Below, one piece after another: positions 9,990 through 50,514 of a stretch of DNA of 64,000 nucleotides. Position numbers and translations under genes: made by a program. Position 1 is the first letter of the stretch. Every line of letters starts with the position of its first letter. The stretch spans positions 6,726,610 through 6,790,609 of the forward strand of contig NC_066518.1 of assembly GCF_024679095.1 (NCBI RefSeq), read 5' to 3'. The stretch comes from Eriocheir sinensis (taxonomy: Eukaryota; Arthropoda; Malacostraca; Decapoda; Varunidae). The notes under the pieces were generated by a model. It made no database searches. It was not told the origin of the DNA and worked only from the letters and a program-made list of their open reading frames with translations.

Positions 9990-11316
9990 TTCCGCCCGGA
10001 ATCGTGCCAAATCTATTCTTCGACTTACCAAAAACTCCTTTATCCATAGCAAATGTCAACACCTTGCTTTCTCTAATTCTTCCAGAGACTTCTGGCTCTT
10101 AGCCAAAAATATCTCCTCCAATTTCACTTCTTCCTCTTTCCCGCCTCTTCTTAATCTAGACGGCAACACTGCCGTCTCATCTATCTCTAAGGCTGAACTC
10201 TTCGCTCATACTTTCTGTAACAACTCCACTCTGGATGATTCTGGGCATATTCCTCCTACTTATCCCCCCTCTGACTCCTTTATGTCTGTTATTAAGATTC
10301 TTAGGAATGATGTTTTCTATGCCCTCTCTGGCCTCAACTCTCAGAAGGCTTATGGACCTGATGGAGTGCCTCCTATTGTCCTTAAAAACTGTGCTTCCGT
10401 GCTGACACCCTGCCTGGTCAAACTCTTTCGCCTCTGCCTATCAACATCTACCTTTCCTTCCTGCTGAAAGTATGCCTTCGTACAGCCTATGTCTAAGAAG
10501 GGTGACCGTTCCAATCCCTCAAACTACCGCCCTATATCTTTACTTTCCTGTCTATCTAAAGCTTTTGAATCAATCCTTAACCGGAAGATTCAAAAGCACC
10601 TTTCCACTTCTAACCTTCTATCTGATCGCCAGTATGGGTTCGGCAAGGGGCGTTCTACTGGCGATCTTCTTGCTCTCAAGTGATTCTTGATCATCCTCTC
10701 TTAGCCGTTTCGGTGAAACTTTCTCAGTTGCGTTAGACATATCGAAAGCTTTCGATAGAGTCTGGCACAAGTCTTTGCTTTCTAAACTGCCCTCTTTTGG
10801 ATTCTATCCTTCTCTCTGTTCCTTTATCTCCAGTTTCCTTTCCGACCGTTCTATCTCTGCTGTGGTAGACGGTCACTGTTCTTCCCCTAAACCTATTAAC
10901 AGTGGTGTTCCACAGGGCTCTGTCCTATCACCCACTCTCTTCCTGTTATTCATAAATGATCTTCTTTCCATAACAAACTGTCCTATCCACTCATACGCTG
11001 ATGACTCCACTCTGCATTATTCAACTTCTTTCAACAGAAGACCCTTTCAACAGGAATTACATGACTCCAGGCTGGAGGCTGCAGAATGCTCAACCTCAGA
11101 CCTTACTATCATTTCCGATTGGGGTAAAAGGAACCTTGTGTCCTTCAATGCCTCAAAAACCAATTTCTCCACCTATCAACTTGACACAATCTTCCAAACC
11201 CCTATCCCCTTTTCTTCGACAACACTCAGCTGTCACCATCTTCAACACTAAACATCCTCGGTCTATCCTTAACTCAAAATCTTAACTGTAAACTTCACAT
11301 CTCCTCGACCTCCAGT
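9990..11316 (+). mobile_element. Jockey-like LINE, degraded reverse transcriptase
   Basis: In several frames the plus strand encodes RT blocks in order: KAYGPDGVPPIVLKNCA (10350s), then KKGDRSNPSNYRPISLL (10495-10550), SDRQYGFGKGRSTGDLL (10620-10670), VALDISKAFDRVWHKSL (10728-10780), INSGVPQGSVLSPTLF (10898-10945) and HSYADDSTLH (10990-11020). The YADD is the RT catalytic box. Stops (for example after TFPSC near 10463) and a frameshift near 10680-10730 break the frame. No 5' ORF or endonuclease is visible. It ends abruptly at about 11316, where a different LINE tail begins. Confidence 0.88.
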
Positions 11317-12929: not shown

Positions 12930-15900
12930 GTGAGAGCATATCGAGAGTGTGTGTGTGTGTGTGTGGGGCGGGTCGTGGGTCGTGGGTTTACTTTGTTTAT
13001 GTTGTTGTTTTGGGTCGCGGCTGCCTTCCAAGCCCTCAAGTGCACGCAAACCTTCCTGCAGAAGTCTGGGGAACTCTACAGGATCTAACCCCACTCTAGT
13101 GACAACGACAAACAAAAAACAACACCTGATATCGACTACCACTGACGGGGCTGTAGAGGTTGTGGCCCCTCAGCCTGGATCTGGATGCATATTTGTGTAG
13201 TCTGTTGGGGCGGGTGTGCAGGGGAGGGAAGTGAATCAAGCGTAATTGTTAATGTTGATATGTTGTGGTGACAAGTGAGTGTGTATTTGTTTTTTGAATG
13301 AGTCTTGTACCGCAGTCTAAAATCTGTTAAGGGAGGCTGTTCCAGTCACGTATGGTGCGTGGAAAGTATGAGTGCTTGTATGCGTCAGTGTTAGTGTGAT
13401 ATGTTTGGTATTTATGGATGTGTGTGTTACGAGTACGATGGCTGTTTGTGTTGTGGGTAAAGATTCGTATTAGGTCCGTGCCAGTATCTCATAATCTATT
13501 TTATGAAACGCTCCACGTTCCTCATTTACGCTCCTTAGAAAGGTTGCCATATGTTACCATTAAGAAACTTATCTCAACAAATGACACTCCAAATTTGACG
13601 CACTTCCACCGAAAACTTAATTTTTAATCAATTTTTTAAACTTTTATGATGTGTTTCGCATCATCGTGCGCCAGGACCTTTTTACCTTTGATGATGCGAA
13701 ACGCGTCATCGTGCGCGAGAGGGTTAACATATTGAATTTGGCAGCGAGGGGGTCAGGTTAGATTTGGTTAGATCACTTAGTTAGGTTATGTCAGGTTTGG
13801 TTAGATTTAGTTTTGTTATTGTAAGGGGATAGTAACCCTTCTGGTTCAAAATATGGCTTTTTAAATTGGCGACTGCACAATTAAGATTTTTGGACAGCTC
13901 CCGGTCTTACAGGAGCTGTTTTGTACAGGCCAACCGGCCTCTTGCAGACTCCTTACGCCCATGTTATTACATGAGTATTTGTTATGCTAGTCTATAGCAA
14001 AGTCTAGAAAATTAATAAGGATGGTGTGCAACAGTTCCTGTCATAAAAATCAGAACCCTCTTCCATGTAGTGATGCCATGACTATATACCCCAATCAATT
14101 TTTATTTTGTTTTATTTCTCAAAAAAATTGGTTTAGAAAATAATTTTTAAGTTTAAAATTATTATTTTGTAATTTTTTTCAGAAAGTGCATCAAAAGGTC
14201 AAGGAAGGTTCTTCAGAAAGTTTTGGAAATCACCTGGTCAGAATGGACATGAAGGGAGTCAGCCTGCTCAGCAGTGTAACAGCCAAGCTGTACTCTCAGA
14301 CTGCCAGTCACCAGTGTCATCAAAGAAGCTTCAGTCACATGCAAATTCACAAATAGAAAATCTCAAAGAGAATTGTATTAGCTTGAATGATACTATGTCA
14401 CCTATCATTGGAAACAGAAGACGAGCTTTGGGACCAAGAAATGTCTGCAGGAACTTAAGTTCTGTAACTCAAGGATTTCAAAAAGAAAAGATTGCTCCTC
14501 CCAAGATAGGTGATAATAACCAAAAAGGCAAGGTATCTCCTTTACAAGAAAATGTGAATGCAAACACATCAAAGAAAGACAGAGGAATGGCAGATGTCAA
14601 AAAGCAAACTGCAACAAAAGAGAAGAATGTGGTCCCTGGTAAGGAAAATGTTTTTGCTGCAACTCAGACTTCTTTAAGGCAGTCAAAAAGAATCAAGGTG
14701 GCCAAGAGAAACAAAGATGCACAAAATGCACCAAAGAAAGACCAAAGAGATACATCTACCAGGGGACAAACTGAGACTAAGTTACTGTCTGAAGCAAACA
14801 GCCTCCCAAAGGAAAGAACAGTGAAAGGAGCTGGCAGAAAGGAGCTAGGTCCTCAAACAAAACCACAAGGAGCCACCATTACAAAAAGTCTGAAGAATAA
14901 AACTGCACTAGTACAAACAAGCAACATCACAAGATCTCTGAATAAAGAGAATATTAAAAGTCCCCATGTCAAAGCCTCTGTTTCTGCAGAACAGGATGCA
15001 GATACTTGTAAAAAGGAACTAGGTTTTCAAACGAGACCTCAGAAAGCAACCACTGGGAAAAATCTCAAGAATAAAGCACCAGCAGTACGAGCAAGTGACA
15101 TCACATCTGGGGGCAAGCGGAGCCTGATTAGCACCTGTGACCAAGTGCATGTGGCTGCTGAACAGTCTTCCAGCAGTGAAAATAAAGAAAGTCACAAAAC
15201 AGGTAAAGATACCACTGTTTTAACTAGGAGAACATCTAAGAGAACAACTCCAAGGTCATTGGGTAAGGAGGATAATGTTGACAAAGGTGATGACACTCCA
15301 AAAACAATTGATGCACAGCGAAGAGTTAAGACTAAGACACCTGCAGAGGAAGAATCAAATGTAAAAGAATTATCCCCCAGTTTGGAATCTAAAGGAAAGG
15401 CTCAAACAAAGTCCAAACAACCAGTCTGGGCTTCAGTTAGAGGCATCAAAATAACCCCTGGGAAGAGGAAGTCTTTCAGACTCGGCAAGGATGCCTATGA
15501 GTTTTCTGGTAGCCCAAGTAAAGAGCATAAAGAAGTCAAAAAGAGTAAAAAGAAAACAAGAAAACCGATAAAGAAGATGAAACCACGTACAAAGTTGACT
15601 CTCCTTACAACAGATCCCTCTTGGCAAGGTGCTGCTTCCAAGGGCATGCTATTCCTTGGTACCTCATTGTCCCGCTCCACCAGTAAAGCCACTGCTTCCA
15701 TGGGGTGCTTGGAGGACTCAGTGGATGATATGGGGGAGGGAACATCCATACCTAGTATCCTGTCAAGTATTAGGGATGAGGATGCTACAGATGATTTTTC
15801 CTCTGAAGCTGACTTTGATGGATTTGAAGAGGAGACCAGAAGTTCATTTATCATTCCCAGCAAATCTAATAACAAGTTAATTCATGTTGGTTCCACCAGT

Positions 15901-18900
15901 GTGCTGCCTACTCCAGCTGCATCTAACTATAAATCCAACTTTGCAGGAAATTCATCTACTCCAAGAATGGAAAATGCTCTTCGAACAGAGGCGCCTGAGT
16001 CTGTGTCAGTTCCCATGACTTCAGCCAATGTTTTACCTACTCCAGTGGTATCTAAACATATTACAAAATTTATAGGAGGCTCATCTACTCCAAGAGTGGA
16101 AAACACTGTGGAATCAGCACTAAATCAAGAAGCAGAAACAGGAAATGACAGCCTAGCCCAGTGCTTTGGTTTTACTGATGAACCAGAGGAAGAAAGTGAT
16201 CTCAACATATCTCCTGTCCAACAGTCCAGACTGCGCCACACACTGGAAATCACAGGCACCTCAGATGTAATGGACGGGGATTTACATCCAGCCACTTTGC
16301 CATCCAGGTTCTCTTGGAGCTCACTTCGCCCAGGTAACCGAACCAGAACATCCTTCACAAGCCGATCCTCAAGCGTGGTGGCTCAGGGCCGATCAGTGTC
16401 CCTCATGACAGACACTTCATCTCGCACTTCACAGCCCACACTATCTTCATTCTTAGTACCGACTGTGGAAAAACAGCATCTAAGACCACAAAGGAAAAAA
16501 TTAGATCATTCACATAGAGACAAGGGCAGTGTGAGTATAGGAACAGAGCCTGGAAAGAGATACAAGGAAACTGATGTGTCTATGTTATTTGATGAAAATG
16601 AAGTGATAGAGGGAGAGACTTCTGGAGGAAAGGAGGTGAGCGAAGCCTCTCAGCCAGGCAGCACACAATCACCACTTAACCCAGCAGCAGAGGGTACTGC
16701 TAACTCCCCTGAAAAAAGCTTCCAAAAGGTTAGTCTGTTAAAAGCATCTGTACCTTCTTTGTCATGCTGAAGATGTGAAATGGTTGTGCTCTTCACTGAA
16801 ATTTTTAAGAAACTGAGTTTCTTTGATAGTCTGCACAATGCATTCTTTTATTTGAACTTTACTGTCAAGGACTCATCATGGTATTATTATGATGTTTATT
16901 TTCATCATCATTTACCCAATTCCTTTGGGGCAGGGAGGGATCAAGATGCTCTCTTATAAATGAGCCAAGAATCTAGTGACAGAAGAAAGAGAGTACTTTT
17001 GAGTAAAACTTCCCCCACTTCTGTTCATCTCATTATAATTATTGAGTATGGCATTGTCCCTTGCACCAGGTCATGAGGCAGACAGTGGTATTGAGTGCTG
17101 TGTGCATCTCTAATTCATTCATTTTGCCTCAACAGCTTGTCTTTCCTTACCTGCAGTTCACATTTACCTTCACATTTTTTCACTGAATGTAACCATATTT
17201 TGTGTCATCACTACCTTAACTACCAATTCCTCTGACATACTGTTGGTTTCAGAGGCCATGTTTTGTACTTTTTCAGGAATAGTTTTTTAACAATGTTGGA
17301 TAAGGATAATTTGGAAAAGTGTGTTTAACACCTTGCCCTGTTTTTATCAATATAATTTATTAGCAAGATTGGATAATTAAAGCATTTATAAGTGGCATGC
17401 AATGATAAAACCCAGAAGAGGAAGTGCTTCCTGATGTGAGGCTATCAAACATTTTTTTTTTTTTTGAGATGCTGTTGTGAGCATGCACTGGAAGGCCAAT
17501 GTATTATAGTGTGTCCTGCATTAATGACTGAGCTTTTCAACTGTGAACACAGCAGAGGAGGTGCTGAGTCTCTTGGTGGGCGGGCTGGCAGGCTGATAGA
17601 TACTGTAGAGCTACATCAAGGTTCTGTTAACAGTTCTGGTACTAGAAATGAAAAAATAATACGATTAAAAACTAATACAGATGTTGGAGGGTGCTGGGCT
17701 TGGTGCTGCTACAAGTGCATGAGCTGTATTTACCTAGTTGTATTTACCTAGTTGTGCACCTGACACTTTGCTGGCCACCAGCTCATGCGAACAACAGTCT
17801 CCACAGCAACGTTTGCTTCCTTACATCAGGAAGCACTTTTTCTTCCAGGTTTTATTATTATGTACCTCTTATAAATGCTTTCTGTATCCACAAGCGTTAA
17901 AAAATCATATCGGTTAAAGTAGGGCGAGGTCTGAAACATGCTTTGCCAAATTATTATCTTTATCCAATCCTTTGTTGTAAAGCTATGCCTGTAAAAGGAT
18001 ACAACACAACCTCTGAAGCCCATAGTAGATGTTTTCCCTGTTCTTGTGCCCTCTACCCTTTTAGTACAATCATACCAACACAGTAGAAAATTATATTTAT
18101 AGTAAGTTATCTACAATCAAAAGTCTTTTTGATGCACCCCCTTCTGCATCTGAAGCTAAGATTTTCATCATTAACGATGTAAATTGTTATTCTTTATAGT
18201 CTGTCTGCACTGATTTCCCTTTTTCTGCCACTCAGTACCCTTCAGCAATATAAACAAAGTCATTGAATATGGAAAAGTCCACTTAACATTATAAACATTT
18301 CCTTTACAGGCACCAAGAAAGTCATATGACCGAAGATCATTGCTGAATGCTAAGAGGAAGTTTATTGAGATGCATGCAGGTTATGCTGGTTCAGACTCCA
18401 ATTCTGAGGTGAGTGAGCACATTCAGGAAATAAGTTATCATAAAAAAATAGATAACACAATATAGGCAGAGGTCATACTGATATAACCAAACTTCTGGTT
18501 TATTGAACTGGCCTTCCACCACCCCAAAGAACACACTTCCCATGTTTGCAACCAGAATTAGGTTGTAATTTAAGCATAGAGATGGCTCTTTGGTAGGATA
18601 TAGGGATGTTAGGGTAACTCATTATCAGTTCTGTTCATAATTGAACATGGCCGGTAGTGAGCTGTGCCTGTCACTTTCGTTTTAATTCTCTGGGTATTTT
18701 ACCTTTTCATGTCAAAGGTGTCTGCAAAAACCTAGAGTTAACCCAGCAGCAGCGGGGATCATGTTTCTTAATGGTCCCTCCAAGCGAGAAAAATGAGAAA
18801 AAATCACCGCTCACACAAACCATTTTATAATACATATCAAAGCATTTGTGATCAGATTATGTATCATCTATTTTGAGGGGTAAATATCATGGCACAAATT

Positions 18901-36010: not shown

Positions 36011-36146
36011 CGTCTCGGGGTCTAAGTTCACCTGTTTGAAAAGCCTCTCGGGGAAGGTGCTGGGGCTTTCATGGACTGTTTTGTGATGCCTGTGATACTT
36101 TAAACGACCTCTGTATCTTAAACCTGAAAAAAAACACCCATGAAAA

Positions 36147-38150
36147 CCCGGCCAATTTTTTCTGTGGCCTTGGGAAACACGGCAAATTTTCTGTGGCCTT
36201 GGGAAACCCTGCTAATTTTCTCTGTGGCCTTGGGAAACACGGCAAATTTTCTGTGGCCTTGGGAAACCCGGCTAATTTTCTCTGTGGCCTTGGGAAACCC
36301 GGCTAATTTTCTCTGTGGCCTTGGGAAACCCGGCCAATTTTCTCTGTGGCCTTGGGAAACCCGGCTAATTTTCTCTGTGGCCTTGGGAAACCCGGCTAAT
36401 TTTCTCTGTGGCCTTGGGAAACCCGGCTAATTTTCTCTGTGGCCTTGGGAAACCCGGCTAATTTTCTCTGTGGCCTTGGGAAACCCGGCTAATTTTCTCT
36501 GTGGCCTTGGGAAACCCGGCTAATTTTCTCTGTGGCCTTGCGAAACACGGCTAATTTTCTCTGTGGCCTTGCGAAACACGGCTAATTTTTTCTGTGGCCT
36601 TGGGAAACACGGCTAATTTTCTCTGTGGCCTTGCGAAACCCGGCTAATTTTCTCTGTGGCCTTGCGAAACCCGGCTAATTTTCTCTGTGGCCTTGCGAAA
36701 CACGGCTAATTTTCTCTGTGGCCTTGGGAAACACGGCTAATTTTCTCTGTGGCCTTGCGAAACCCGGCTAATTTTCTCTGTGGCCTTGCGAAACCCGGCT
36801 AATTTTCTCTGTGGCCTTGGGAAACACGGAAAATTTTCTGTGGCCTTGGGAAACCCGGCTAATTTTCTCTGTGGCCTTGGGAAACCAGCTAATTTTCTCT
36901 GTGGCCTTGCAGAAACCCAGCTAATTTTGTCTGTGGCCTTGCGAAACACGGCTAATTTTCTCTGTGGCCTTGGGAAACACGGCTAATTTTCTCTGTGGCC
37001 TTGCGAAACCCGGCTAATTTTCTCTGTGGCCTTGCGAAACCCGGCTAATTTTCTCTGTGGCCTTGGGAAACCCGGCTAATTTTCTCTGTGGCCTTGCGAA
37101 ACACGGCTAATTTTTTCTGTGGCCTTGGGAAACACGGCTAATTTTCTCTGTGGCCTTGCGAAACCCGGCTAATTTTCTCTGTGGCCTTGCGAAACACGGC
37201 TAATTTTCTCTGTGGCCTTGCGAAACACGGCTAATTTTCTCTGTGGCCTTGCGAAACCCGGCTAATTTTCTCTGTGGCCTTGGGAAACACGGCTAATTTT
37301 CTCTGTGGCCTTGCGAAACCCTGCTAATTTTCTCTGTGGCCTTGGGAAACACGGCTAATTTTCTCTGTGGCCTTGGGAAACACGGCTAATTTTCTCTGTG
37401 GCCTTGGGAAACACGGCTAATTTTCTCTGTGGCCTTGGGAAACACGGCTAATTTTTTCTGTGGCCTTGCGAAACCCGGCTAATTTTCTCTGTGGCCTTGG
37501 GAAACACGGCTAATTTTTTCTGTGGCCTTGGGAAACACGGCTAATTTTTTCTGTGGCCTTGCGAAACCCGGCTAATTTTTTCTGTGGCCTTGCGAAACCC
37601 GGCTAATTTTTTCTGTGGCCTTGCGAAACCCGGCTAATTTTTTCTGTGGCCTTGCGAAACCCGGCTAATTTTTTCTGTGGCCTTGGGAAACCCGGCTAAT
37701 TTTTTCTGTGGCCTTGGGAAACACGGCTAATTTTTTCTGTGGCCTTGCGAAACACGGCTAATTTTTTCTGTGGCCTTGCGAAACCCGGCTAATTTTTTCT
37801 GTGGCCTTGGGAAACCCAGCTAATTTTTTCTGTGGCCTTGGGAAACACGGCTAATTTTTTCTGTGGCCTTGCGAAACACGGCTAATTTTTTCTGTGGCCT
37901 TGGGAAACACGGCTAATTTTTTCTGTGGCCTTGGGAAACCCGGCTAATTTTTTCTGTGGCCTTGGGAAACCCGGCTAATTTTTTCTGTGGCCTTGCGAAA
38001 CCCGGCTAATTTTTTCTGTGGCCTTGGGAAACCCGGCTAATTTTTTCTGTGGCCTTGCGAAACCCGGCTAATTTTCTCTGTGGCCTTGGGAAACCCGGCT
38101 AATTTTTTCTGTGGCCTTGCGAAACACGGCTAATGTTTTCTGTGGGCTTC
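36147..38150. repeat. 31-bp satellite, about 64 copies
   Basis: The unit reads CCCGGCTAATTTTCTCTG then TGGCCTTGGGAAA. Three sites vary almost as two-state markers: CCC/CAC before GG, GGGAAA/GCGAAA, and TTTTCTCTG/TTTTTTCTG. CTCTG dominates up to about 37440 and TTCTG after it. At the left end some units are shortened (GGCAAATTTTCTG). Open frames come from the period and are not genes. Confidence 0.96.
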
Positions 38151-39367: not shown

Positions 39368-39368
<1 letters not shown>

Positions 39369-39404
39369 CAACTATTCGCAAATAAATCTTGATAAGTAAG
39401 AAAA
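39367..39404. repeat. 38-bp direct repeat, gene A 3' side
   Basis: GGCAACTATTCGCAAATAAA then TCTTGATAAGTAAGAAAA. The same sequence occurs on the other side of gene A (42761-42798) and on both sides of gene B (45851, 48746). It lies about 355 bp beyond the gene's stop codon. Confidence 0.9.
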
Positions 39405-39591
39405 TATAATGCACTCTTAGCCGTGGGTCGTTAGATCAATATAGATTTGTTAAACATGCAGGCAGGAATTGGTTTGCTAATAGAATGGTAGACGAATGGA
39501 AGAGACTTGGCAGTCGTGCATGTGGTGAATTTCACTGTGATAGGCACACTATTATTAATAGGTAAGGTAAATTCATTAATAGGATAATAGT

Positions 39592-39761: not shown

Positions 39762-42533
39762 TTAGTGAAGCAAGACAATGTACACAACGACAGCACAGAT
39801 GGCCGTGACGTCCAGGAAGGCATCAGCCTCATCAGACCAGTCATCACTGGTTATCAATTCGAGGGCTTCCCATGGATCCTCATCCTCTTCAGACCAGTCA
39901 TCACTGGTTATCAATTCGAGGGCATCCCATGGATCATCATCCTCATCAGACCAGTCATTACTGGTTATCAATTCGAGGGCATCCCATGGATCCTCATCCT
40001 CATCAGACCAGTCATTACTGGTTATCAATTCGAGGGCATCCCATGGATCATCATCCTCATCAGACCAGTCATTACTGGTTATCAATTCGAGGTCATCCAT
40101 GGATCATCACCCTCATCAGACCAGTCATTACTGGTTATCAATTCGAGGGCATCCCATGGATCATCATCCTCATCAGACCAGTCATTACTGGTTATCAATT
40201 CGAGGCATCCATGGATCATCATCCTCATCAGACCAGTCATTACTGGTTATCAATTCGAGGGCATCCCATGGATCCTCATCCTCATCAGACCAGTCATTAC
40301 TGGTTATCAATTCGAGGGCATCCCATGGATCATCATCCTCATCAGACCAGTCATTACTGGTTATCAATTCGAGGGCATCCCATGGATCATCATCCTCATC
40401 AGACCAGTCATTACTGGTTATCAATTCGAGGGCATCCCATGGATCATCATCCTCATCAGACCAGTCATTACTGGTTATCAATTCGAGGGCATCACATGGA
40501 TCATCCTCATCAGACCAGTCATTACTGGTTATCAATTCGAGGGCATCCCATGGATCCTCATCCTCATCAGACCAGTCATTACTGGTTATCAATTCGAGGG
40601 CATCCCATGGATCATCATCCTCATCAGACCAGTCATCACTGGTTATCAATTCGAGGGCATCCCATGGATCATCATCCTCATCAGACCAGTCATCACTGGT
40701 TATCAATTCGAGGGCATCCCATGGATCATCAGCTTCATCGGTGATGGCGGCCACCGATTCGGCGGATGCCCAAGGATCATCACCCTCATCAGACGAGTCA
40801 TCACGGGTCGTCACTTCAAGGAGTGCCAATGGAACATCACCCTCATCAGACGAGTCATCACGGGTCATTGCTTCAAAGGCTGGCCACGGATCATCACCCT
40901 CATCAGACGAGTCATCACGGGTCGTCACTTCAAGGAGTGCCAATGGAACATCACCCTCATCAGTCGAGTCATCACGGGTCATTGCTTCAAAGGCTGGCCA
41001 TGGATCATCACCCTCATCAGACGAGTCATCACGGGTCGTCACTTCAAGGAGTGCCAATGGAACATCACCCTCATCAGACGAGTCATCACGGGTCATTGCT
41101 TCAAAGGCTGGCCATGGATCATCACCCTCATCAGACGAGTCATCACGGGTCGTCACTTCAAGGAGTGCCAGTGGAACATCACCCTCATCAGACGAGTCAT
41201 CACGGGTCATTGCTTCAAAGGCTGGCCATGGATCATCACCCTCATCAGACGAGTCATCACGGGTCGTCACTTCAAGGAGTGCCAATGGAACATCACCTTC
41301 ATCAGACGAGTCATCACGGGTCATTGCTTCAAAGGCTGGCCATGGATCATCACCCTCATCAGACGAGTCATCACGGGTCGTCACTTCAAGGAGTGCCAAT
41401 GGAACATCACCCTCATCGGTGATGGCGGTCACCAATTCGGCGGGTGCCCATGGATCATCAGCCTCCACGGACCAGTCATCACGGGTCATTGCTTCAAAGG
41501 CTGCCCATGAATCATCAGCCTCATCGGTGATGGCGGTCACCAATTCGGCGGGTGCCCATGGATCATCAGCCTCCACGGACCAGTCATCACGGGTCATTGC
41601 TTCAAAGGCTGCCCATGAATCATCAGCCTCATCGGTGATGGCGGTCACCAATTCGGCGGGTGCCCATGGATCATCAGCCTCCACGGACCAGTCATCACGG
41701 GTCATTGCTTCAAAGGCTGCCCATGAATCATCAGCCTCATCGGTGATGGCGGTCACCAATTCGGCGGGTGCCCATGGATCATCAGCCTCCACGGACCAGT
41801 CATCACGGGTCATTGCTTCAAAGGCTGCCCATGAATCATCAGCCTCGACCATAGCAACAGAGGTCACCAAGTCTGGGGCTGCCCATGAATCATCAGCCTC
41901 CACGGACCAGTCATCACGGGTCATTGCTTCAAAGGCTGCCCATGAATCATCAGCCTTGACCATAGCAACAGAGGTCACCAAGTCTGGGGCTGGCCATGAA
42001 TCATCAGCCTCCACGGACCAGTCGTCATGGGTAGTCACTTCAAAGGCTGCCCATGCATCAGCCTCATCGGTCCTGGCCACCCCGTCAGTGGCCGCACGCG
42101 GTGCAAGGGTCACCGCCCGGACGGGCTCGCCACACCGCCTCCCGTTGCACCGGAGGCTGGTGAAGGCGGGCCCGTCGTCACAGAAGAGCGAGAAGTGGAG
42201 GCCGCTGATGTTGTCCAGCAGCCAGGCCAGCGGCATGGAAGAGGTGAAGACTGGCCTCCTAAGCGAGGCGAATTGCACCCTGACGGCCGCGTTGCCGTCT
42301 TTCTTGCACAGCTTCGCCAAGGGCACACGCAGCTCACCCTCGGCGTGGCAGCCTTGAATCCCAGCGACGCAAGACCAGCCTTCCACGGGGAGCTTGACGG
42401 AGGCGACCGTACGCCTCCTCTTCAGGCAGCAGGTGGAGTCCTTGCACGAGAGCTTGATGGAGTCCACCAGGGAGGAGCCTCGCTCCAGGGTTACCCACAC
42501 GTTGAATTTCTGTCGAGTTGCAGAGTTTCCCAT
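39762..42533 (-). pseudogene. Acidic Trp-module repeat protein, copy A (frameshifted)
   Basis: Same gene as copy B, and longer because it has about nine more modules. The N-terminal domain differs from copy B at only a few residues (for example Ala for Ser at 57, Arg for Lys at 93, Leu for Pro at 143). Reading from the ATG at 42531-42533, the frame runs 782 codons to a stop at 40185-40187. The cause is a 2-nt deletion at about 40203-40210 (GAGGCATCCATGG where neighbours have GAGGGCATCCCATGG); a 1-nt deletion one to two modules later (about 40091-40100) restores the original frame. The last 109 codons, including the hydrophobic C-terminus, are then in frame again. So copy A as read is truncated and lacks the anchor. 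Either it is a young pseudogene or the assembly has errors in the array; both deletions are in near-identical modules. The + strand is also open across the array, but the non-repeat part shows G/C-ending codons in the minus frame. Confidence 0.7.
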
Positions 42534-42760
42534 CGTTGTTTCGATGTGATACAAAAAAATTATCCGAATATTGAGGAAATCGGTGTTAGGTAATAAAAGG
42601 AGGTGCTATGTCCATGAAGACCGACTGGCCTCCAGCAAATTCTTTCTGCTATAATCTTGCCTAGTCGGCTAAGTAGTGCAGTTCACGCGTCGGATGGCGG
42701 GTGACAGGGCTGTTGCTAAACTATAAAGGAATAGATAAAATATTCTTAATTCTTTTGAAT

Positions 42761-42798
42761 GGCAACTATTCGTAAATAAATCTTGATAAGTAAGAAAA
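42761..42798. repeat. 38-bp direct repeat, gene A 5' side
   Basis: GGCAACTATTCGTAAATAAA then TCTTGATAAGTAAGAAAA, one base different from the copy at 39367. It lies about 230 bp upstream of the gene A start codon. Confidence 0.9.
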
Positions 42799-44225
42799 AA
42801 TAACCTTGCTTAACTTTTATTTCATGCATAATGCGTGGATAACATGCCTTGGGTTCTTCATACATTAGTTATTTCCCAGTGTGTCGCGTAGGTACTCTTT
42901 CCCTCCATATCTGTTCCCTTTATCCCGTGTCTGTCCATTGCGATTTCTTAATTTTAGTTGCCTTTCTGCCTACTACACCCCTGGATTGTTACTAATGAGA
43001 CCAGAGGACATCCAATACCTACTTGCTCTATTATTGTTATTATTATTACTATTATCATCATCATCGTATATAGTAGTAGTATTACAACTCGTATTAACCA
43101 ATACCTCTCTATGTTGTACTCAGTCTTTCTTCGCTAAATACAAAGTTCTCATTTACTACTCAACGGCAGGTTTTATAGTTTTCACCTTCTTTGAATTCCA
43201 CATATGATACTTTACACCCAATTACTTTTTTTGCTTTGCACATCTGCGTCATATTATTACTAACAGTGGATATCAGATTGTTGGATCATTATTACAGTAA
43301 ATATGAGATATATGGATAATTTTTAGAGGTGTTCATCATCCAGTAAAGTGGTTCGTGGAAAGTTGATATCATAGGAATAAGGTCTGGAAACACGTAGTTG
43401 GAACTTGGAGTATGGGCGTTGTGCTGAGTTTTTCCGTGGTTATGGTCTAAGAGTCTGGAGGAACTGTCAAAGGGAAATCAAGAATGAGCTCGGGAGGCAG
43501 CATGAGCCAAGAATAGATGGCGTCACTATAAACACTTGCCTGCGCCACGATGGGCTCGAGCCGACCACCAGGCCCCCAAAGAAAGCCTACCGGCACCATA
43601 GGCCAAGATGTAAAAAAAAAAAAATAAATAAAGATAGTAGCAGTAGTAGTAGTAGTAGTAGTAGTAGTTTTCCTGTACTGTATTCCAATGTATTTAAGAA
43701 GGTGTAATGTACAATATGACCGTAACTGGTGAGTAAAGGAACGCGTGCCGTAAAAAGGGTTGCCCTTAATGATTTTATCTTGTCTGCCTTCCCTGATTAG
43801 TCATTTTTCTTTTTTCTACATTAAACAAAAAGGTTTTGCTAAATGTTTTTTTTCCTGATATTTGGAAATTTATGTTCAGTGTTTATTTATTGATATTTTT
43901 CTGTGTTTGGTTTATGGCTTTTGTTTTGTGGTCAGCTTTTGTTCATCTACTTCCTTTTCAGTCGCGTTACAATTCTGATATTTTGACGCGTTTCCATTTG
44001 CGGGAACATAAAAGATTCTGGCAGTCGCTCTCCCTTTAGTATATGCACTCCTCTGGTTTCTTCCTCTGACCCTCACACCCTCTCTTCTCTCCTCTCCTCT
44101 CCTCTCCTCTCCTCTCCTCTCCTCTCCTCTCCTCTCTTTTACTGTGTTTTCTTTCACCTTGAGATCCGTCTGAGCAGTCCTCCCTCCTTCACGCTTCGTC
44201 CTGCTCTTTTCTTGAGGCTAATTTC
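42799..44225. other. Upstream flank of gene A
   Basis: Shared with 48784-50214. Contains short (TTA)n and (CAT)n runs, a SINE 3' tail (43545-43625), (TAG)n at 43634-43669 and (CCTCT)n at 44088-44137. The open frames here (for example 42881-43207) are AT-rich and lack codon bias, so I do not call a gene. Confidence 0.5.
43545..43625 (+). mobile_element. SINE 3' fragment (same family as 25240-25647)
   Basis: CACGATGGGCTCGAGCCGAC to AGCCTACCGGCACCATAGGC, then an A-rich tail. This matches the complement of the 3' part of the SINE at 25296-25400 (GGGCCGACCATCAGGCCCC to GCCTACCGGCGCTATAGG). Confidence 0.7.
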
Positions 44226-44385
<160 letters not shown>

Positions 44386-44451
44386 CTGAGGTAGGACGTC
44401 AAGAATGGTCAAACACACACACACACACACACACACAAACACGAAAAACAA

Positions 44452-44487
<36 letters not shown>

Positions 44488-44940
44488 GAAACAACTACAA
44501 CAACAACAAGAAACAACAACAACAAGAAACAACAACAACAACCACCACTACAACAACAACAACAAATCGAAACTGGAGGAGATATTTGTTGATTTTTTTC
44601 TCTTTTCCAACTTCGTATTTTTCTGGCCTATTTTTCTTCTTCTCGTTCTTGGACTTGACAACGAAAAAAAAAAAAAAAAACCAGCAACAACAAAAAAAAA
44701 GAATGGAACCAAAATATCGAAACTGTAGAGAGATATTTGTGTTGTTGATTTTTTTTTTCCAGCTTTCGTTTTATTTTCCTAGACTATTTAATTTTCATTC
44801 TTATAAACATGCAAGGGACTGACTCACTCACCGTTCCGCCTTGCTGTTGAGGGAGACTAAGATCAAATCGGTACTATCCAAGGAAACTATATTAGAGGAG
44901 ACAGTAGTATGTAGTAATTCCTATAGTCTCCTTGGTACTG

Positions 44941-45138
44941 TCAGACGCTACCACCCCTCACATCAGCTATTTCCAAATTTCGAAAAGGAGATCAACCGCG
45001 TTCAAAGGGGTGTTTTAATAGGTCTAGGGCACAGAGGAAGGGTCGAACTACCAGCAGGGTCATCAAACTATCCCTGGAAGTGCCCCAAACTCCCACGAAA
45101 GCCTTGTGAAATATGTGAGCTTGGGCACAGAAATGTTT
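44941..45138 (+). repeat. Dispersed repeat, about 200 bp (copy 3)
   Basis: TCAGACGCTACCACCCCTCA to GGGCACAGAAATGTTT; same family and orientation as 32133-32347. Present only in duplication copy B. Confidence 0.75.
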
Positions 45139-45247
45139 AATAATAATAATACGGCCGTCAGTGAAATTAATGAGCATAGAGGGAATGAACGCTGTGAGAG
45201 GCCGACTAAAAGAAAATGGGACGTGTACTGATAGCTATAGACGTTAA

Positions 45248-45888
<641 letters not shown>

Positions 45889-46075
45889 TATAATGCACTC
45901 TTAGCCATGGGTCGTTAGATCAATATAGATTTGTTAAGCATGCAGGCAGGAATTGGTTTGCTAATAGAATGGTAGACGAATGGAAGAGACTTGGCAGTCG
46001 TGCATGTGGTGAATTTCACTGTGATAGGCACACTATTATTAATAGGTAAGGTAAATTCATTAATAGGATAATAGT

Positions 46076-46081
46076 TTTATT
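46076..46081 (-). terminator. Gene B polyadenylation signal
   Basis: AATAAA on the minus strand about 165 nt after the stop codon, at the same place as in copy A. Confidence 0.5.
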
Positions 46082-46245
46082 GTAAAGGTTTTCATTGATA
46101 AGATAAGAAATACAGCTGGAGCTCCTCCCCTGAAGGTGTAATAAGAGCGACGGTCACTAAAGGGAGTCTCGCTCCCCGGGAGTGTGGCTCACGATGTGGC
46201 TCGCGCCTGCGCCGGGGGTCACTGGTGAGTGTGTTACCAGGCTGC

Positions 46246-48516
46246 TTAGTGAAGCAAGACAATGTACACAACGACACCACAGATGGCCGTGACGTCCAGG
46301 AAGGCATCAGCCTCATCAGACCAGTCATCACTGGTTATCAATTCGAGGGCTTCCCATGGATCCTCATCCTCTTCAGACCAGTCATCACTGGTTATCAATT
46401 CGAGGGCATCCCATGGATCATCATCCTCATCGGTGATGGCGGCCACCGATTCGGCGGATGCCCATGGATCCTCATCCTCATCAGACCAGTCATTACTGGT
46501 TATCAATTCGAGGGCATCCCATGGATCATCATCCTCATCAGACCAGTCATTACTGGTTATCAATTCGAGGGCATCCCATGGATCATCATCCTCATCAGAC
46601 CAGTCATTACTGGTTATCAATTCGAGGGCATCCCATGGATCATCATCCTCATCAGACCATTCATTACTGGTTATCAATTCGAGGGCATCCCATGGATCAT
46701 CACCCTCATCAGACCAGTCATCACTGGTTATCAATTCGAGGGCATCCCATGGATCCTCATCCTCATCAGACCAGTCATTACTGGTTATCAATTCGAGGGC
46801 ATCCCATGGATCATCATCCTCACCAGACCAGTCATTACTGGTTATCAATTCGAGGGCATCCCATGGATCCTCATCCTCATCAGACCAGTCATCACTGGTT
46901 ATCAATTCGAGGGCATCCCATGGATCATCAGCTTCATCGGTGATGGCGGCCACCGATTCGGCGGATGCCCAAGGATCATCACCCTCATCAGACGAGTCAT
47001 CACGGGTCGTCACTTCAAGGAGTGCCAATGGAACATCACCGTCATCAGACGAGTCATCACGGGTCATTGCTTCAAAGGCTGGCCACGGATCATCACCCTC
47101 ATCAGACGAGTCATCACGGGTCGTCACTTCAAGGAGTGCCAATGGAACATCACCCTCATCAGGCGAGTCATCACGGGTCATTGCTTCAAAGGCTGGCCAC
47201 GGATCATCACCCTCATCAGACGAGTCATCACGGGTCGTCACTTCAAGGAGTGCCAATGGAACATCACCCTCATCAGACGAGTCATCACGGGTCATTGCTT
47301 CAAAGGCTGGCCACGGATCATCACCCTCATCAGACGAGTCATCACGGGTCGTCACTTCAAGGAGTGCCAATGGAACATCACCCTCATCAGACGAGTCATC
47401 ACGGGTCATTGCTTCAAAGGCTGGCCATGGATCATCACCCTCATCAGACGAGTCATCACGGGTCGTCACTTCAAGGAGTGCCAATGGAACATCACCCTCA
47501 TCAGACGAGTTATCACGGGTCATTGCTTCAAAGGCTGGCCATGGATCATCACCCTCATCAGACGAGTCATCACGGGTCGTCACTTCATGGAGTGCCAATG
47601 GAACATCAGAATCATCGGTGATGGCGGTCACCAATTCGGCGGGTGCCCATGGATCATCAGCCTCCACGGACCAGTCATCACGGGTCATTGCTTCAAACGC
47701 TGCCCATGAATCATCAGCCTCATCGGTGATGGCGGTCACCAATTCGGCGGGTGCCCATGGATCATCAGCCTCCACGGACCAGTCATCACGGGTCATTGCT
47801 TCAAAGGCTGCCCATGAATCATCAGCCTCGACTATAGCAACAGAGGTCACCAAGTCTGGGGCTGCCCATGAATCATCAGCCTCCACGGACCAGTCATCAC
47901 GGGTCATTGCTTCAAAGGCTGCCCATGAATCATCAGCCTCGACCATAGCAACAGAGGTCACCAAGTCTGGGGCTGCCCATGAATCATCAGCCTCCACGGA
48001 CCAGTCGTCATGGGTAGTCACTTCAAAGGCTGCCCATGCATCAGCCTCATCGGTCCTGGCCACCCCGTCAGTGGCCGCACGCGGTGCAGGGGTCACCGCC
48101 CGGACGGGCTCGCCACACCGCCTCCCGTTGCACCGGAGGCTGGTGAAGGCGGGCCCGTCGTCACAGAAGAGCGAGAAGTGGAGGCCGCTGATGTTGTCCA
48201 GCAGCCAGGCCAGCGGCATGGAAGAGGTGAAGACTGGCTTCCTAAGCGAGGCGAATTGCACCCTGACGGCCGCGTTGCCGTCTTTCTTGCACAGCTTCGC
48301 CAAGGGCACACGCAGCTCACCCTCGGCGTGGCAGCCTTGAATCCCAGAGACGCAAGACCAGCCTTCCACGGGGAGCTTGACGGAGGCGACCGTACGCCTC
48401 CTCTTCAGGCAGCAGGTGGAGTCCTTGCACGAGAGCTTGATGGAGTCCACCAGGGAGGAGCCTCGCTCCAAGGTTACCCACACGTTGAATTTCTGTCGAG
48501 TTGCAGAGTTTCCCAT
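46246..48516 (-). CDS. Acidic Trp-module repeat protein, copy B (intact, 756 aa)
   Basis: I do not recognise the family and propose no function. A single uninterrupted frame starts at the ATG of 48514-48516 (context AACGATGG, a good Kozak match). Residues 1-8 read MGNSATRQ, fitting the N-myristoylation pattern M-G-x-x-x-S/T. Residues 9-140 form a non-repetitive domain with nine Cys (30, 35, 36, 55, 62, 76, 118, 129, 134) and alternating hydrophobic/polar strands. From about 157, about 31 modules follow: DDSWAAFEAMTRDDWSVEA, DDPWAPAELVTAITDEA, DVPLALLEVTTRDDSSDEG paired with DDPWPAFEAMTRDDSSDEG, then DDPWDALELITSNDWSDED. The last 21 residues hold a hydrophobic stretch (VTAICGVVVYIVLLH) that could be a tail anchor. 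No signal peptide. Codons in the N-terminal domain mostly end in G or C, supporting this strand. The modules are very acidic, so the protein may be a calcium- or cation-binding or scaffold-like protein, but that is a guess. Confidence 0.75.
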   Translation of the reverse strand: MGNSATRQKFNVWVTLERGSSLVDSIKLSCKDSTCCLKRRRTVASVKLPVEGWSCVSGIQGCHAEGELRVPLAKLCKKDGNAAVRVQFASLRKPVFTSSMPLAWLLDNISGLHFSLFCDDGPAFTSLRCNGRRCGEPVRAVTPAPRAATDGVARTDEADAWAAFEVTTHDDWSVEADDSWAAPDLVTSVAMVEADDSWAAFEAMTRDDWSVEADDSWAAPDLVTSVAIVEADDSWAAFEAMTRDDWSVEADDPWAPAELVTAITDEADDSWAAFEAMTRDDWSVEADDPWAPAELVTAITDDSDVPLALHEVTTRDDSSDEGDDPWPAFEAMTRDNSSDEGDVPLALLEVTTRDDSSDEGDDPWPAFEAMTRDDSSDEGDVPLALLEVTTRDDSSDEGDDPWPAFEAMTRDDSSDEGDVPLALLEVTTRDDSSDEGDDPWPAFEAMTRDDSPDEGDVPLALLEVTTRDDSSDEGDDPWPAFEAMTRDDSSDDGDVPLALLEVTTRDDSSDEGDDPWASAESVAAITDEADDPWDALELITSDDWSDEDEDPWDALELITSNDWSGEDDDPWDALELITSNDWSDEDEDPWDALELITSDDWSDEGDDPWDALELITSNEWSDEDDDPWDALELITSNDWSDEDDDPWDALELITSNDWSDEDDDPWDALELITSNDWSDEDEDPWASAESVAAITDEDDDPWDALELITSDDWSEEDEDPWEALELITSDDWSDEADAFLDVTAICGVVVYIVLLH

Positions 48517-48745
48517 CGTTGTTTCGATGTGATACAAAAAAAATTATCCGAATATTGAGGAAATCGTTGTTAGGTAACAAAAGGAGGTGCTATGTCCATG
48601 AAGACCGACTGGCCTCCAGCAAATTCTTTCTGCTATAATCTTGCCTAGTCGGCTAAGTAGTGCAGTTCACGCGGCGGATGGCGGGTGACAGGGCTGTTGC
48701 TAAACTATAAAGGAATAGATAAAATATTCTTAATTCTTTTGAATG

Positions 48746-48783
48746 GCAACTATTCGCAAATAAATCTTGATAAGTAAGAAAAA
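48746..48783. repeat. 38-bp direct repeat, gene B 5' side
   Basis: Same sequence as 45851-45888, about 230 bp upstream of the start codon of gene B. Confidence 0.9.
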
Positions 48784-49624
48784 ATAACCTTGCTTAACTT
48801 TTATTTCATGCATAATGCGTGGATAACATGCCTTGGGTTCTTCATACATTAGTTATTTCCCAGAGTGTCGCGTAGGTACTCTTTCCCTCCATATCTGTTC
48901 CCTTTATCCCGTGTCTGTCCATTGCGATTTCTTAATTTTAGTTGCCTTTCTGCCTACTACACCCCTGGATTGTTACTAATGAGACCAGAGGACATCCAAT
49001 ACCTACTTGCTCTATTATTGTTATTATTATTACTATTATCATCATCATCGTATATAGTAGTAGTATTACAACTCGTATTAACCAATACCTCTCCATGTTG
49101 TACTCAGTCTTTCTTCGCTAAATACAAAGTTCTCATTTACTACTCAACGGCAGGTTTTATAGTTTTCACCTTCTTTGAATTCCACATATGGTACTTTACA
49201 CCCAATTACTTTTTTTGCTTTGCACATCTGCGTCATATTATTACTAACAGTGGATATCAGATTGTTGGATCATTATTACAGTAAATATGAGATATATGGA
49301 TAATTTTTAGAGGTGTTCATCATCCAGTAAAGTGGCTTGTGGAAAGTTGATATCATAGGAATAAGGTCTGGAAACACGTAGTTGGAACTTGGAGTATGGG
49401 CGTTGTGCTGAGTTTTTCCGTGGTTATGGTCTAAGAGTCTGGAGGAACGGTCAAAGGGAAATCAAGAATGAGCTCGGGAGGCAGCATGAGCCAAGAATAG
49501 ATGGCGTCACTATAAACACTTGCCTGCGCCACGATGGGCTCGAGCCGACCACCAGGCCCCCAAAGAAAGCCTACCGGCACCATAGGCCAAGATGTAAAAA
49601 AAATAAATAAATAAAGATAGTAGC

Positions 49625-49663
<39 letters not shown>

Positions 49664-50210
49664 TTTCCTGTACTGTATTCCAATGTATTTAAGAAGGTGT
49701 AATGTACAATATGACCGTAACTGGTGAGTAAAGGAACGCGTGCCGTAAAAAGGGTTGCCCTTAATGATTTTATCTTGTCTGCCTTCCCTGATTAGTCATT
49801 TTTCTTTTTTCTACATTAAACAAAAAGGTTTTGCTAAATGTTTTTTTTCCTGATATTTGGAAATTTATGTTCAGTGTTTATTTATTGATATTTTTCTGTG
49901 TTTGGTTTATGGCTTTTGTTTTGTGGTCAGCTTTTGTTCATCTGCTTCCTTTTCAGTCGCGTTACAATTCTGATATTTTGACGCGTTTCCATTTGCGGGA
50001 ACATAAAAGATTCTGGCAGTCGCTCTCCCTTTAGTATATGCACTCCTCTGGTTTCTTCCTCTGACCCTCACACCCTCTCTCCTCTCCTCTCCTCTCCTCT
50101 CCTCTCCTCTCCTCTCCTCTCTTTTACTGTGTTTTCTTTCACCTTGAGATCCGTCTGAGCAGTCCTCCCTCCTTCACGCTTCGTCCTGCTCTTTTCTTGA
50201 GGCTAATTTC

Positions 50211-50214
<4 letters not shown>
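48784..50214. other. Upstream flank of gene B
   Basis: Near-identical to 42799-44225, with small differences in (TAG)n and (CCTCT)n length. No gene seen. Confidence 0.5.
49529..49620 (+). mobile_element. SINE 3' fragment, duplicated copy
   Basis: Same as 43545-43625; it was carried by the segmental duplication and is not an independent insertion. Confidence 0.7.

Positions 50215-50514
<300 letters not shown>

What the first reader, a model, noticed from the sequence alone, without database searches (positions are those of the whole stretch)
46246..48516. Unrecognised protein: myristoylation-like start, Cys domain, about 31 acidic Trp modules, hydrophobic end
Seen: a 756-codon intact frame, MGNSAT start, nine cysteines in the first 134 residues, about 31 modules of 17-19 residues such as DDPWDALELITSNDWSDED, and a hydrophobic C-terminus. 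Known: M-G-x-x-x-S/T is the N-myristoyltransferase pattern; short C-terminal hydrophobic ends can be tail anchors. Inference: a membrane-attached, strongly acidic repeat protein with both ends at the membrane. I know no family with this layout.
Basis: partly seen in the sequence, partly recalled or inferred. Interest (0 to 1): 0.82.

Follow-up and report, generated by a model that had tools for sequence, protein, structure and literature searches.

The report
Double-anchored repeat-linker membrane protein family
The odd acidic-repeat gene is real and belongs to a large, apparently undescribed gene family in this animal genome, whose proteins seem built to hold a membrane at both ends with a fast-changing repeat chain in between.

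Summary
Confirmed: 46246-48516 (-) is an intact 756-codon single-exon frame with MGNSAT start, 31 acidic Trp modules and hydrophobic end. A frame-broken second copy lies at 39762-42533.

The decisive evidence is the window's own 1.77-Gb assembly. The N-terminal domain gives 150 scored matches of 261 candidates: by my count 125 near-copies (81-100%) and 25 weaker rows (43-69%), mostly distant paralogues. In 25 aligned domains Gly2 is invariant and residue 6 is Ser (24) or Thr (1); dN/dS is below 1 in all 275 usable pairs, median 0.46. The hydrophobic tail is recognisable in 15 of 22 distant paralogues read, while the linker differs by subfamily: 14-, 17- or 19-residue repeats, or none. The ends are conserved; the acidic Trp array is one subfamily's linker.

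Best reading: an N-myristoylated, C-terminally membrane-anchored protein with a variable linker, acting as tether or surface brush. Architecture is well supported; acylation, insertion, expression and function are inferred. No relative was found in Pfam, NCBIfam, PDB, IMG/VR, GTDB contigs or the protein collection, but these may cover animals poorly.

The parts
46246..48516 (-). copy B: intact 756-codon single-exon frame
48079..48516 (-). N-terminal domain (146 codons): MGxxxS/T start, net charge +10, six family-conserved Cys
   Evidence: GC3 0.82, GC3 contrast, dN/dS, invariants
46309..48042 (-). linker: 31 acidic Trp modules of 17-19 residues (51/54/57 nt) in blocks of different unit types; net charge -189; 19 DPW
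46249..46308 (-). C-terminal hydrophobic tail DAFLDVTAICGVVVYIVLLH, homologous to the tail of distant paralogues
48706..48711 (-). TTTATA element 195 nt before the ATG, kept in most copies read
46076..46081 (-). AATAAA 165 nt after the stop, the same distance in copy A
48746..48787 (-). 5' copy of the 42-bp direct repeat (about 91 bp in many other family copies)
45852..45893 (-). 3' copy of the 42-bp direct repeat, cut short here by (TC)n
39762..42533 (-). copy A of the gene: about 40 modules, frame broken in the last block (open only to 40185)
42096..42533 (-). N-terminal domain of copy A, 98% identical protein, frame intact
42762..42803 (-). 5' 42-bp direct repeat of copy A
39368..39409 (-). 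3' 42-bp direct repeat of copy A
40331..50255 (.). tandem segmental duplication, 40331-44270 against 46305-50255, unit about 6 kb

Best explanation
46246-48516 encodes one member of a large single-exon gene family of intracellular membrane proteins with a fixed plan: an N-myristoylation signal (MGxxxS/T), a conserved basic domain of about 140 residues with six conserved Cys, a rapidly evolving repeat linker that differs between subfamilies, and a C-terminal transmembrane-type segment. Likely working: N-myristoyltransferase acylates Gly2 and the basic domain docks on an acidic cytosolic membrane face; the C-terminal segment inserts after translation as a tail anchor; the disordered linker then forms a chain held at both ends, either bridging two membranes (tether) or looping on one membrane as a surface brush. 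In this subfamily the linker is a coding minisatellite giving about 20-40 acidic Trp modules. Shown: gene, family, purifying selection, conservation of both ends, linker exchange. Inferred: acylation, insertion, topology, tethering or brush action.
For: Family: 150 scored matches of 261 candidates in the own genome, 150 of 230 with a distant member as query. Start motif: G2 25/25, residue 6 S 24 or T 1 in aligned domains; 21 of 22 distant paralogues read start MGxxxS/T, the exception (L072) lacks the start in its frame; among 54 near-copies G2 51, residue 6 S 47 or T 7. Selection: near-copies, shared variants dN/dS 0.45 (p 0.010), their synonymous rate (0.154 per site) equal to upstream non-coding DNA (0.146) and above the nonsynonymous rate (0.069); paralogues, 275 pairs with 0.05<dS<1.2, median 0.46, range 0.19-0.94, copy B against L085 0.24. 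Tail: consensus-like TWxD[AV]FxDxTA[IV]Cx(V/A)(V/A)xSx(V/F)LxY in most of 15 distant paralogues, last 0-14 residues after the hydrophobic stretch, basic residues before the tail in the 11 distant paralogues tested (6-14 K/R against 3-5 D/E). Linker: periods 17 (L062, L068), 14 (L064, L075-L077), 19/38 (copy B), none clear (L061, L066). Array spacings multiples of 3 in 696 of 709; frame open from ATG through tail in 12 of 25 near-copies, 599-926 residues.
Against: No transcript, proteomic or cell data. About half of the near-copies are broken: 13 of 25 do not read through to the tail, 11 of 54 have a damaged N-terminal frame. Singleton variants look neutral (dN/dS 0.82, not significant). Three near-copies on contig C20 have Gly2 replaced by Arg in an intact frame. 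Inside the array substitutions look neutral (S 6, N 22, expected S 6.7; pN/pS 0.95). The tail of this subfamily is short (15-19 residues) and preceded by acidic, not basic, residues. Both structure predictions failed (mean pLDDT 34.8 and 41.1). The tail motif was not seen in 7 of 22 distant paralogues, several of which are broken or leave frame.
Confidence: 0.6

Rival explanations
1. Real membrane-anchored gene family, but the linker is functionless spacer: the acidic Trp array is a minisatellite expanding inside a tolerant region, and only the N-terminal domain and tail work.
For: Linkers are unrelated in sequence between most subfamilies; array substitutions look neutral; the module is not more amphipathic than shuffles; copies A and B differ by about 9 modules while upstream DNA differs by 11 mismatches in 1200.
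Against: In the array 31 of 31 modules of copy B are in frame and 696 of 709 spacings over 25 copies are multiples of 3; tryptophan, rare in the other linkers (0-1), is kept at 39 in this one.
Confidence: 0.25
2. Multivalent endocytic-adaptor mimic: the 19 DPW motifs bind AP-2 appendages by avidity, as in epsin, on a membrane-anchored chain.
For: 19 DPW in copy B; DP[FW] is an alpha-appendage ligand of about 120 uM whose weak binding gains by multiplicity (PMC5694535, passages).
Against: No FxDxF and no WXX[FW]X[DE]; no ENTH, EH or other Pfam domain; 18 of 22 distant paralogues have no DP[FW], 4 have one, so it cannot be the family function; the motifs stem from copying one unit and are not independent.
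Confidence: 0.1
3. Nuclear acidic activator or cofactor trap: the acidic Trp/Leu array acts as an activation domain on a basic Cys domain.
For: 166 of 718 39-residue tiles meet the published acidic activation-domain rule (rule from PMC10550315, passages; computed), starting only at residues 519-718.
Against: The same fraction as in shuffled array (0.270 against 0.271); the other two blocks tested give 0 of 107 and 0 of 171 tiles; linkers of the distant paralogues are not strongly acidic (charge -22 to +25); myristoylation motif and hydrophobic tail conserved.
Confidence: 0.05
4. Cargo of a mobile element, or a decayed virus gene, spread without host function.
For: Many near-identical intronless copies, 42-91-bp direct repeats around the gene, copies beside (TC)n, many broken copies.
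Against: Homology ends differ between copies and upstream regions are of several types, more like segmental duplication; no transposition enzyme belongs to the shared unit; purifying selection over dS up to 1.2; no IMG/VR relative.
Confidence: 0.1

Closest known systems
NPIP / LCR16a core-duplicon family of primates (PMC7419210, passages seen)
   Same: Recently amplified family in interspersed segmental duplications, enriched on one chromosome, with a coding tandem repeat of variable length in the C-terminal part.
   Different: NPIP is an eight-exon family with reported positive selection; here single exon, dN/dS below 1, membrane-type ends; no sequence relation was tested or claimed.
Rlec lectins of Macrobrachium nipponense (PMC7536079, abstract seen)
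   Same: Crustacean multigene family with a variable number of in-frame coding tandem repeats, function reported to change with repeat number.
   Different: C-type lectins with introns and 30/33-bp units; no lectin domain here.
Hyper-expanded DNA segment Mj024A04 of Marsupenaeus japonicus (PMC2838849, abstract seen)
   Same: Shrimp genome segment at 100 or more copies and at least 48 loci.
   Different: That segment carries homologues of a shrimp virus and apoptosis inhibitors; none was seen in the about 6-kb unit here, though only Pfam and ORF lists were used.
N-myristoylated proteins with a transmembrane segment (TMEM106B, PMC12268641, listing and start of abstract only)
   Same: Combines N-myristoylation with a membrane span.
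   Different: TMEM106B is a type II protein; here the span is at the extreme C-terminus and the middle is a repeat linker.
Epsin / Eps15-type AP-2 ligands (PMC5694535, passages)
   Same: Multiple DPW motifs in a disordered chain attached to a membrane.
   Different: No ENTH or EH domain, no FxDxF; DPW confined to one subfamily.

Membership tests
N-myristoylated proteins | Met-Gly start with Ser/Thr at residue 6 (PROSITE PS00008-type pattern, recalled) | tested here: met
   Pattern matched by copy B; Gly2 25/25, Ser/Thr6 25/25; exception 3 C20 near-copies with Arg2
N-myristoylated proteins | myristate on Gly2 | not testable with these tools
   needs metabolic labelling
Tail-anchored proteins | single hydrophobic span at the C-terminus, none elsewhere | tested here: met
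   highest 19-residue hydropathy ends 0-14 residues from the C-terminus in 16 of 16 sequences with the tail, value 1.81-2.33; a dedicated predictor was not run
Tail-anchored proteins | insertion into a membrane | not testable with these tools
   needs cell or microsome assay
Epsin-type AP-2 ligands | ENTH/ANTH or EH domain | tested here: not met
   no Pfam match
Epsin-type AP-2 ligands | multiple DP[FW], FxDxF or WXX[FW]X[DE] motifs | tested here: inconclusive
   19 DPW, 0 FxDxF, 0 WXX[FW]X[DE]
Acidic activation domains | 39-residue tiles meeting charge and W/F/Y/L rule | tested here: inconclusive
   166 of 718 tiles, same as shuffled array
Core-duplicon gene families (NPIP-like behaviour) | interspersed recent copies enriched on one chromosome | tested here: met
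   20 of 54 places from then on contig C10, 1.4% of the assembly; 26 of 125 near-copy rows by my count
Core-duplicon gene families (NPIP-like behaviour) | positive selection | tested here: not met
   dN/dS below 1 in 275 of 275 pairs
Transposable element | constant ends, target-site duplication, own or borrowed enzyme | tested here: inconclusive
   variable ends; target-site duplications not tested systematically
Virus-derived protein | relative in virus sequence collections | tested here: not met
   4 scans of IMG/VR without a relative

The most novel reading that the evidence does not exclude
A previously undescribed family of double-anchored membrane tethers (myristoyl plus basic domain at one end, transmembrane tail at the other) in which the linker is an exchangeable, slippage-tuned molecular string: gene copies change the length, charge and binding content of the string while selection keeps both anchors. 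Its explosive recent amplification (about 125 near-copies, one contig strongly enriched) would fit a genetic-conflict role, for example against pathogens at membranes or in the germ line.
Probability: 0.3. Interest if true: 0.85.

Novelty: new variant of a known kind. Interest (0 to 1): 0.62.

Why it matters
If true, a large animal gene family with conserved membrane anchors and a freely exchanged repeat linker has gone unnamed in the libraries searched here. It would be a natural experiment on how linker length and chemistry tune a membrane protein, and a second case, beside primate core duplicons, of a coding tandem repeat riding on interspersed segmental duplication. It also shows that the striking acidic Trp array is a late elaboration, so function should be sought first in the N-terminal domain and the tail.

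Tried and rejected
Homology by sequence: three protein-collection searches, Pfam, NCBIfam, PHROGs, PDB sequences, IMG/VR (17, 28, 71, 126), GTDB contigs (29, 72) gave no relative. Weak chance-level rows were discarded: PHROG HNH endonuclease E 0.0062 and another E 0.081 inside the array (37), Pfam DUF3303 0.15 and ODC_AZ 0.89 (5), KH_GLD-3 0.024 in one of 15 members (125), nucleoporin Nsp1 E 1 (40). Candidates that share words only were not aligned further.

AlphaFold2 of the domain (two sequences) and of the whole protein gave mean pLDDT 34.8 and 41.1, so no fold search was run.

First idea, mobile element with a fixed 3' end: with copy B as reference, downstream homology seemed to stop at the 42-bp repeat, but copy B is itself cut there by (TC)n; with other copies as reference homology runs up to about 2 kb past the tail. 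Dinucleotide repeats beside left block ends: 86 of 439 against background 548 of 4400, only mildly enriched and not independent.

Ka/Ks between copies A and B alone is uninformative (4 differences in 438 nt, 3 nonsynonymous). The first class count in the array mixed in a mis-registered unit; one search replaces it. LIR, UIM, clathrin-box, W-acidic and NPF readings of the module were counted and dropped: strict xLIR, UIM, clathrin box, W-acidic, NPF all 0. Rows dropped before counts: L058-L060 (misplaced stretches) and, for the upstream comparison, L033; L072 and L083-L084 from the domain alignment.
Full report
What is there. The minus strand at 46246-48516 carries a 756-codon frame without a stop, beginning MGNSATRQK, followed by 31 modules of 17-19 residues and a hydrophobic end. 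The protein is electrically two-faced: residues 1-140 carry +10, the array -189. The array falls into blocks of related unit types: DDSWAAFEAMTRDDWSVEA alternating with shorter units, DDPWPAFEAMTRDDSSDEG alternating with DVPLALLEVTTRDDSSDEG, and DDPWDALELITSNDWSDED. There is a TTTATA 195 nt upstream of the ATG and an AATAAA 165 nt after the stop, at nearly the same distances in the second copy, so the gene looks complete in one exon.

Is it coding? The array alone proves little: it is a tandem repeat whose unit is a multiple of three, and it is open in a + strand frame too. The unique N-terminal 438 nt are the useful part: GC3 0.82, a GC3 contrast reached by 13 of 127,162 windows and a GC3 reached in 0 of 2000 shuffles, although 104 of 2000 shuffles are open by chance. 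Only the stated frame is open through both parts.

Copies. A tandem segmental duplication puts a second copy at 39762-42533, 98% identical in the N-terminal protein, with about 40 modules and two spacings that leave frame. The own-genome search, answered after several busy replies, placed the window at contig C10:6726610-6790609 of a 1,765,103,840-bp assembly and listed 222 matches to the whole protein (59 of 968 candidates scored). With the N-terminal domain alone, 150 of 261 candidates were scored and all 150 matched: 125 rows at 81-100% identity and 25 at 43-69% by my count of the listing. These are lower bounds by the tool's own statement. Near-copies are dispersed over many contigs but enriched on C10: 20 of 54 places taken, 26 of 125 rows by my count. 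Places in tandem are not independent, so the small binomial p is only indicative. A third copy, inverted, lies about 4 kb beyond the window's right end (C10:6794642).

Near-copies, anatomy. In 25 distinct near-copies with enough sequence, the frame runs from ATG through the tail in 12, with lengths of 599-926 residues, and is broken in 13. Spacings between module anchors are multiples of three in 696 of 709 cases and the tail is in frame with the ATG by net length in 17 of 25. A 42-bp direct repeat lies before the gene in 20 of 22 and, with the family context, after it in 17 of 22 (counted); in copies other than the window's two it extends to about 91 bp and includes the TTTATA. Upstream regions are of several types and homology ends differ, which points to segmental duplication and unequal exchange rather than one transposing element with fixed ends. 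Some copies stand in tandem with a unit of about 6-7 kb.

Selection among near-copies. Of 54 comparable N-terminal domains, 43 have an intact frame. In the 42 of these with alignable upstream DNA, variants shared by two or more copies are 19 synonymous and 21 nonsynonymous, dN/dS 0.45, p 0.010; the synonymous rate (0.154 per site) equals that of the 178 nt upstream (0.146) and the nonsynonymous rate is half of it (0.069). Variants found once are 18 and 36, dN/dS 0.82, not significant. So the lineages that were copied were constrained, while single copies drift. An earlier count on 25 copies agreed (26 S, 35 N, 0 stop). Shared variants may include gene conversion, and the counts are against a consensus, not a tree.

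Distant paralogues. I read 22 distant paralogues (L061-L082) and five closer ones (L083-L087). 21 of 22 distant ones begin MGxxxS/T: MGNKVS, MGNKAS, MGHKVS, MGHKAS, MGQKVS, MGNSAS, MGQSAS; L072 lacks the start in its frame. Over 25 aligned domains Gly2 is invariant, residue 6 is Ser 24 and Thr 1, and 33 positions are invariant or have one exception. Six of the nine Cys of copy B are kept in 19-25 of 25. dN/dS is 0.19-0.94, median 0.46, in the 275 pairs with dS between 0.05 and 1.2; copy B against L085 is 0.24. Pairs are not independent. GC3 is 0.79-0.93 in all 25.

The tail. In 15 of 22 distant paralogues the protein ends in a hydrophobic segment recognisably related to that of copy B: TWTDAFVDVTAICAVVVSGVLAYYTCC (L077), TWEDVFIDVTAICAIVVSSVLVYHMWW (L062), against DAFLDVTAICGVVVYIVLLH here; L061 is the most divergent. 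In the 11 distant paralogues that the script could test, 40 residues before it hold 6-14 Lys/Arg and 3-5 Asp/Glu, as expected for a cytosolic side; copy B instead has 0 Lys/Arg and 19 Asp/Glu there. The other distant paralogues are broken, leave frame or end before a tail was seen.

The linker. Between domain and tail the paralogues carry different material: a 17-residue unit (ADGGQAASDLTPASTAR type; L062, L068), a 14-residue unit (TTETGDGSAITKVS, EEGDARPITKDSAT, THITKAANTRAGDV types; L064, L075-L077), Pro/Arg-rich stretches (L078-L082), or short unrepeated linkers (L061, L066). The acidic Trp unit occurs in copy B's near-copies and in L085-L087. Some linkers are related to each other (for example L062 and L068, 62%); copy B's gives E 7e-7 to L077 with low-complexity filtering off, which I do not take as homology. 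Charges of the distant linkers run from -22 to +25, against -190 here.

How it most likely works. The two conserved ends are both membrane signals, and the middle is free to change. I therefore read the family as proteins held at a membrane by N-myristate plus a basic domain and by a C-terminal span, with a disordered chain between. If the two anchors sit in different membranes the protein is a tether of adjustable length; if in one membrane it is a brush or loop that presents repeated motifs. Shown here: the family, the selection, the conserved ends, the exchange and length change of the linker. Inferred: acylation, insertion, topology and action. The acidic Trp array may add a specific activity in this subfamily. 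Its 19 DPW motifs resemble AP-2 appendage ligands (PMC5694535, passages), but FxDxF and WXX[FW]X[DE] are absent and 18 of 22 distant paralogues have no DP[FW]. The activation-domain rule of PMC10550315 (passages) is met by 166 of 718 tiles, no more than in shuffled sequence. Within the array substitutions look neutral.

Known or new. No relative was found in Pfam, NCBIfam, PHROGs, PDB sequences, four IMG/VR scans, two GTDB scans and three protein-collection searches. How far these hold animal proteins I could not establish, so the family may exist in crustacean annotations as uncharacterised proteins. The literature searches listed no paper that I recognised as describing it; I saw listings, and passages or abstracts of seven papers only. 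Behaviour closest to it: primate NPIP core duplicons (PMC7419210, passages) and repeat-variable prawn lectins (PMC7536079, abstract).

Noticed in passing
window 14173-16767 (+): 865-codon stop-to-stop frame with KEN-like motifs, Lys/Ser-rich, GC3 0.35 and CpG o/e 0.17, looks like a cell-cycle or chromatin protein; no Pfam, NCBIfam or PDB match.
   Followed up: partly
window 10691-11248 (+): Reverse transcriptase fragment, RVT_1 E 2.7e-21, a LINE-like remnant.
   Followed up: partly
window 6813-7893 and 36144-38149: Long tandem arrays of a 51-bp unit (21.5 copies, 97%) and a 31-bp unit (64.9 copies, 94%).
   Followed up: no
L047, L049, L050 (contig C20) near-copies: Gly2 replaced by Arg in an otherwise intact N-terminal frame, a small group that lost the myristoylation site.
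   Followed up: no
window 45852-45893 and 48746-48787; 39368-39409 and 42762-42803: Direct repeats around each gene copy, about 91 bp with a TTTATA in many other copies, as if a promoter block were duplicated downstream; no second gene was identified behind it.
   Followed up: partly
L009 271-774 (+) and matching ORFs in L010, L026, L027: 168-codon frame MARQSHYAYLPNF... in the upstream region of one copy type, no Pfam match.
   Followed up: partly
L078, L079, L081, L082: Pro/Arg-rich linkers that may be other-frame readings of a repeat linker with the frame regained before the tail; only by eye.
   Followed up: no
L024 7455-8000 (+): Reverse transcriptase fragment (RVT_1 E 9.8e-9) downstream of a near-copy.
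   Followed up: no
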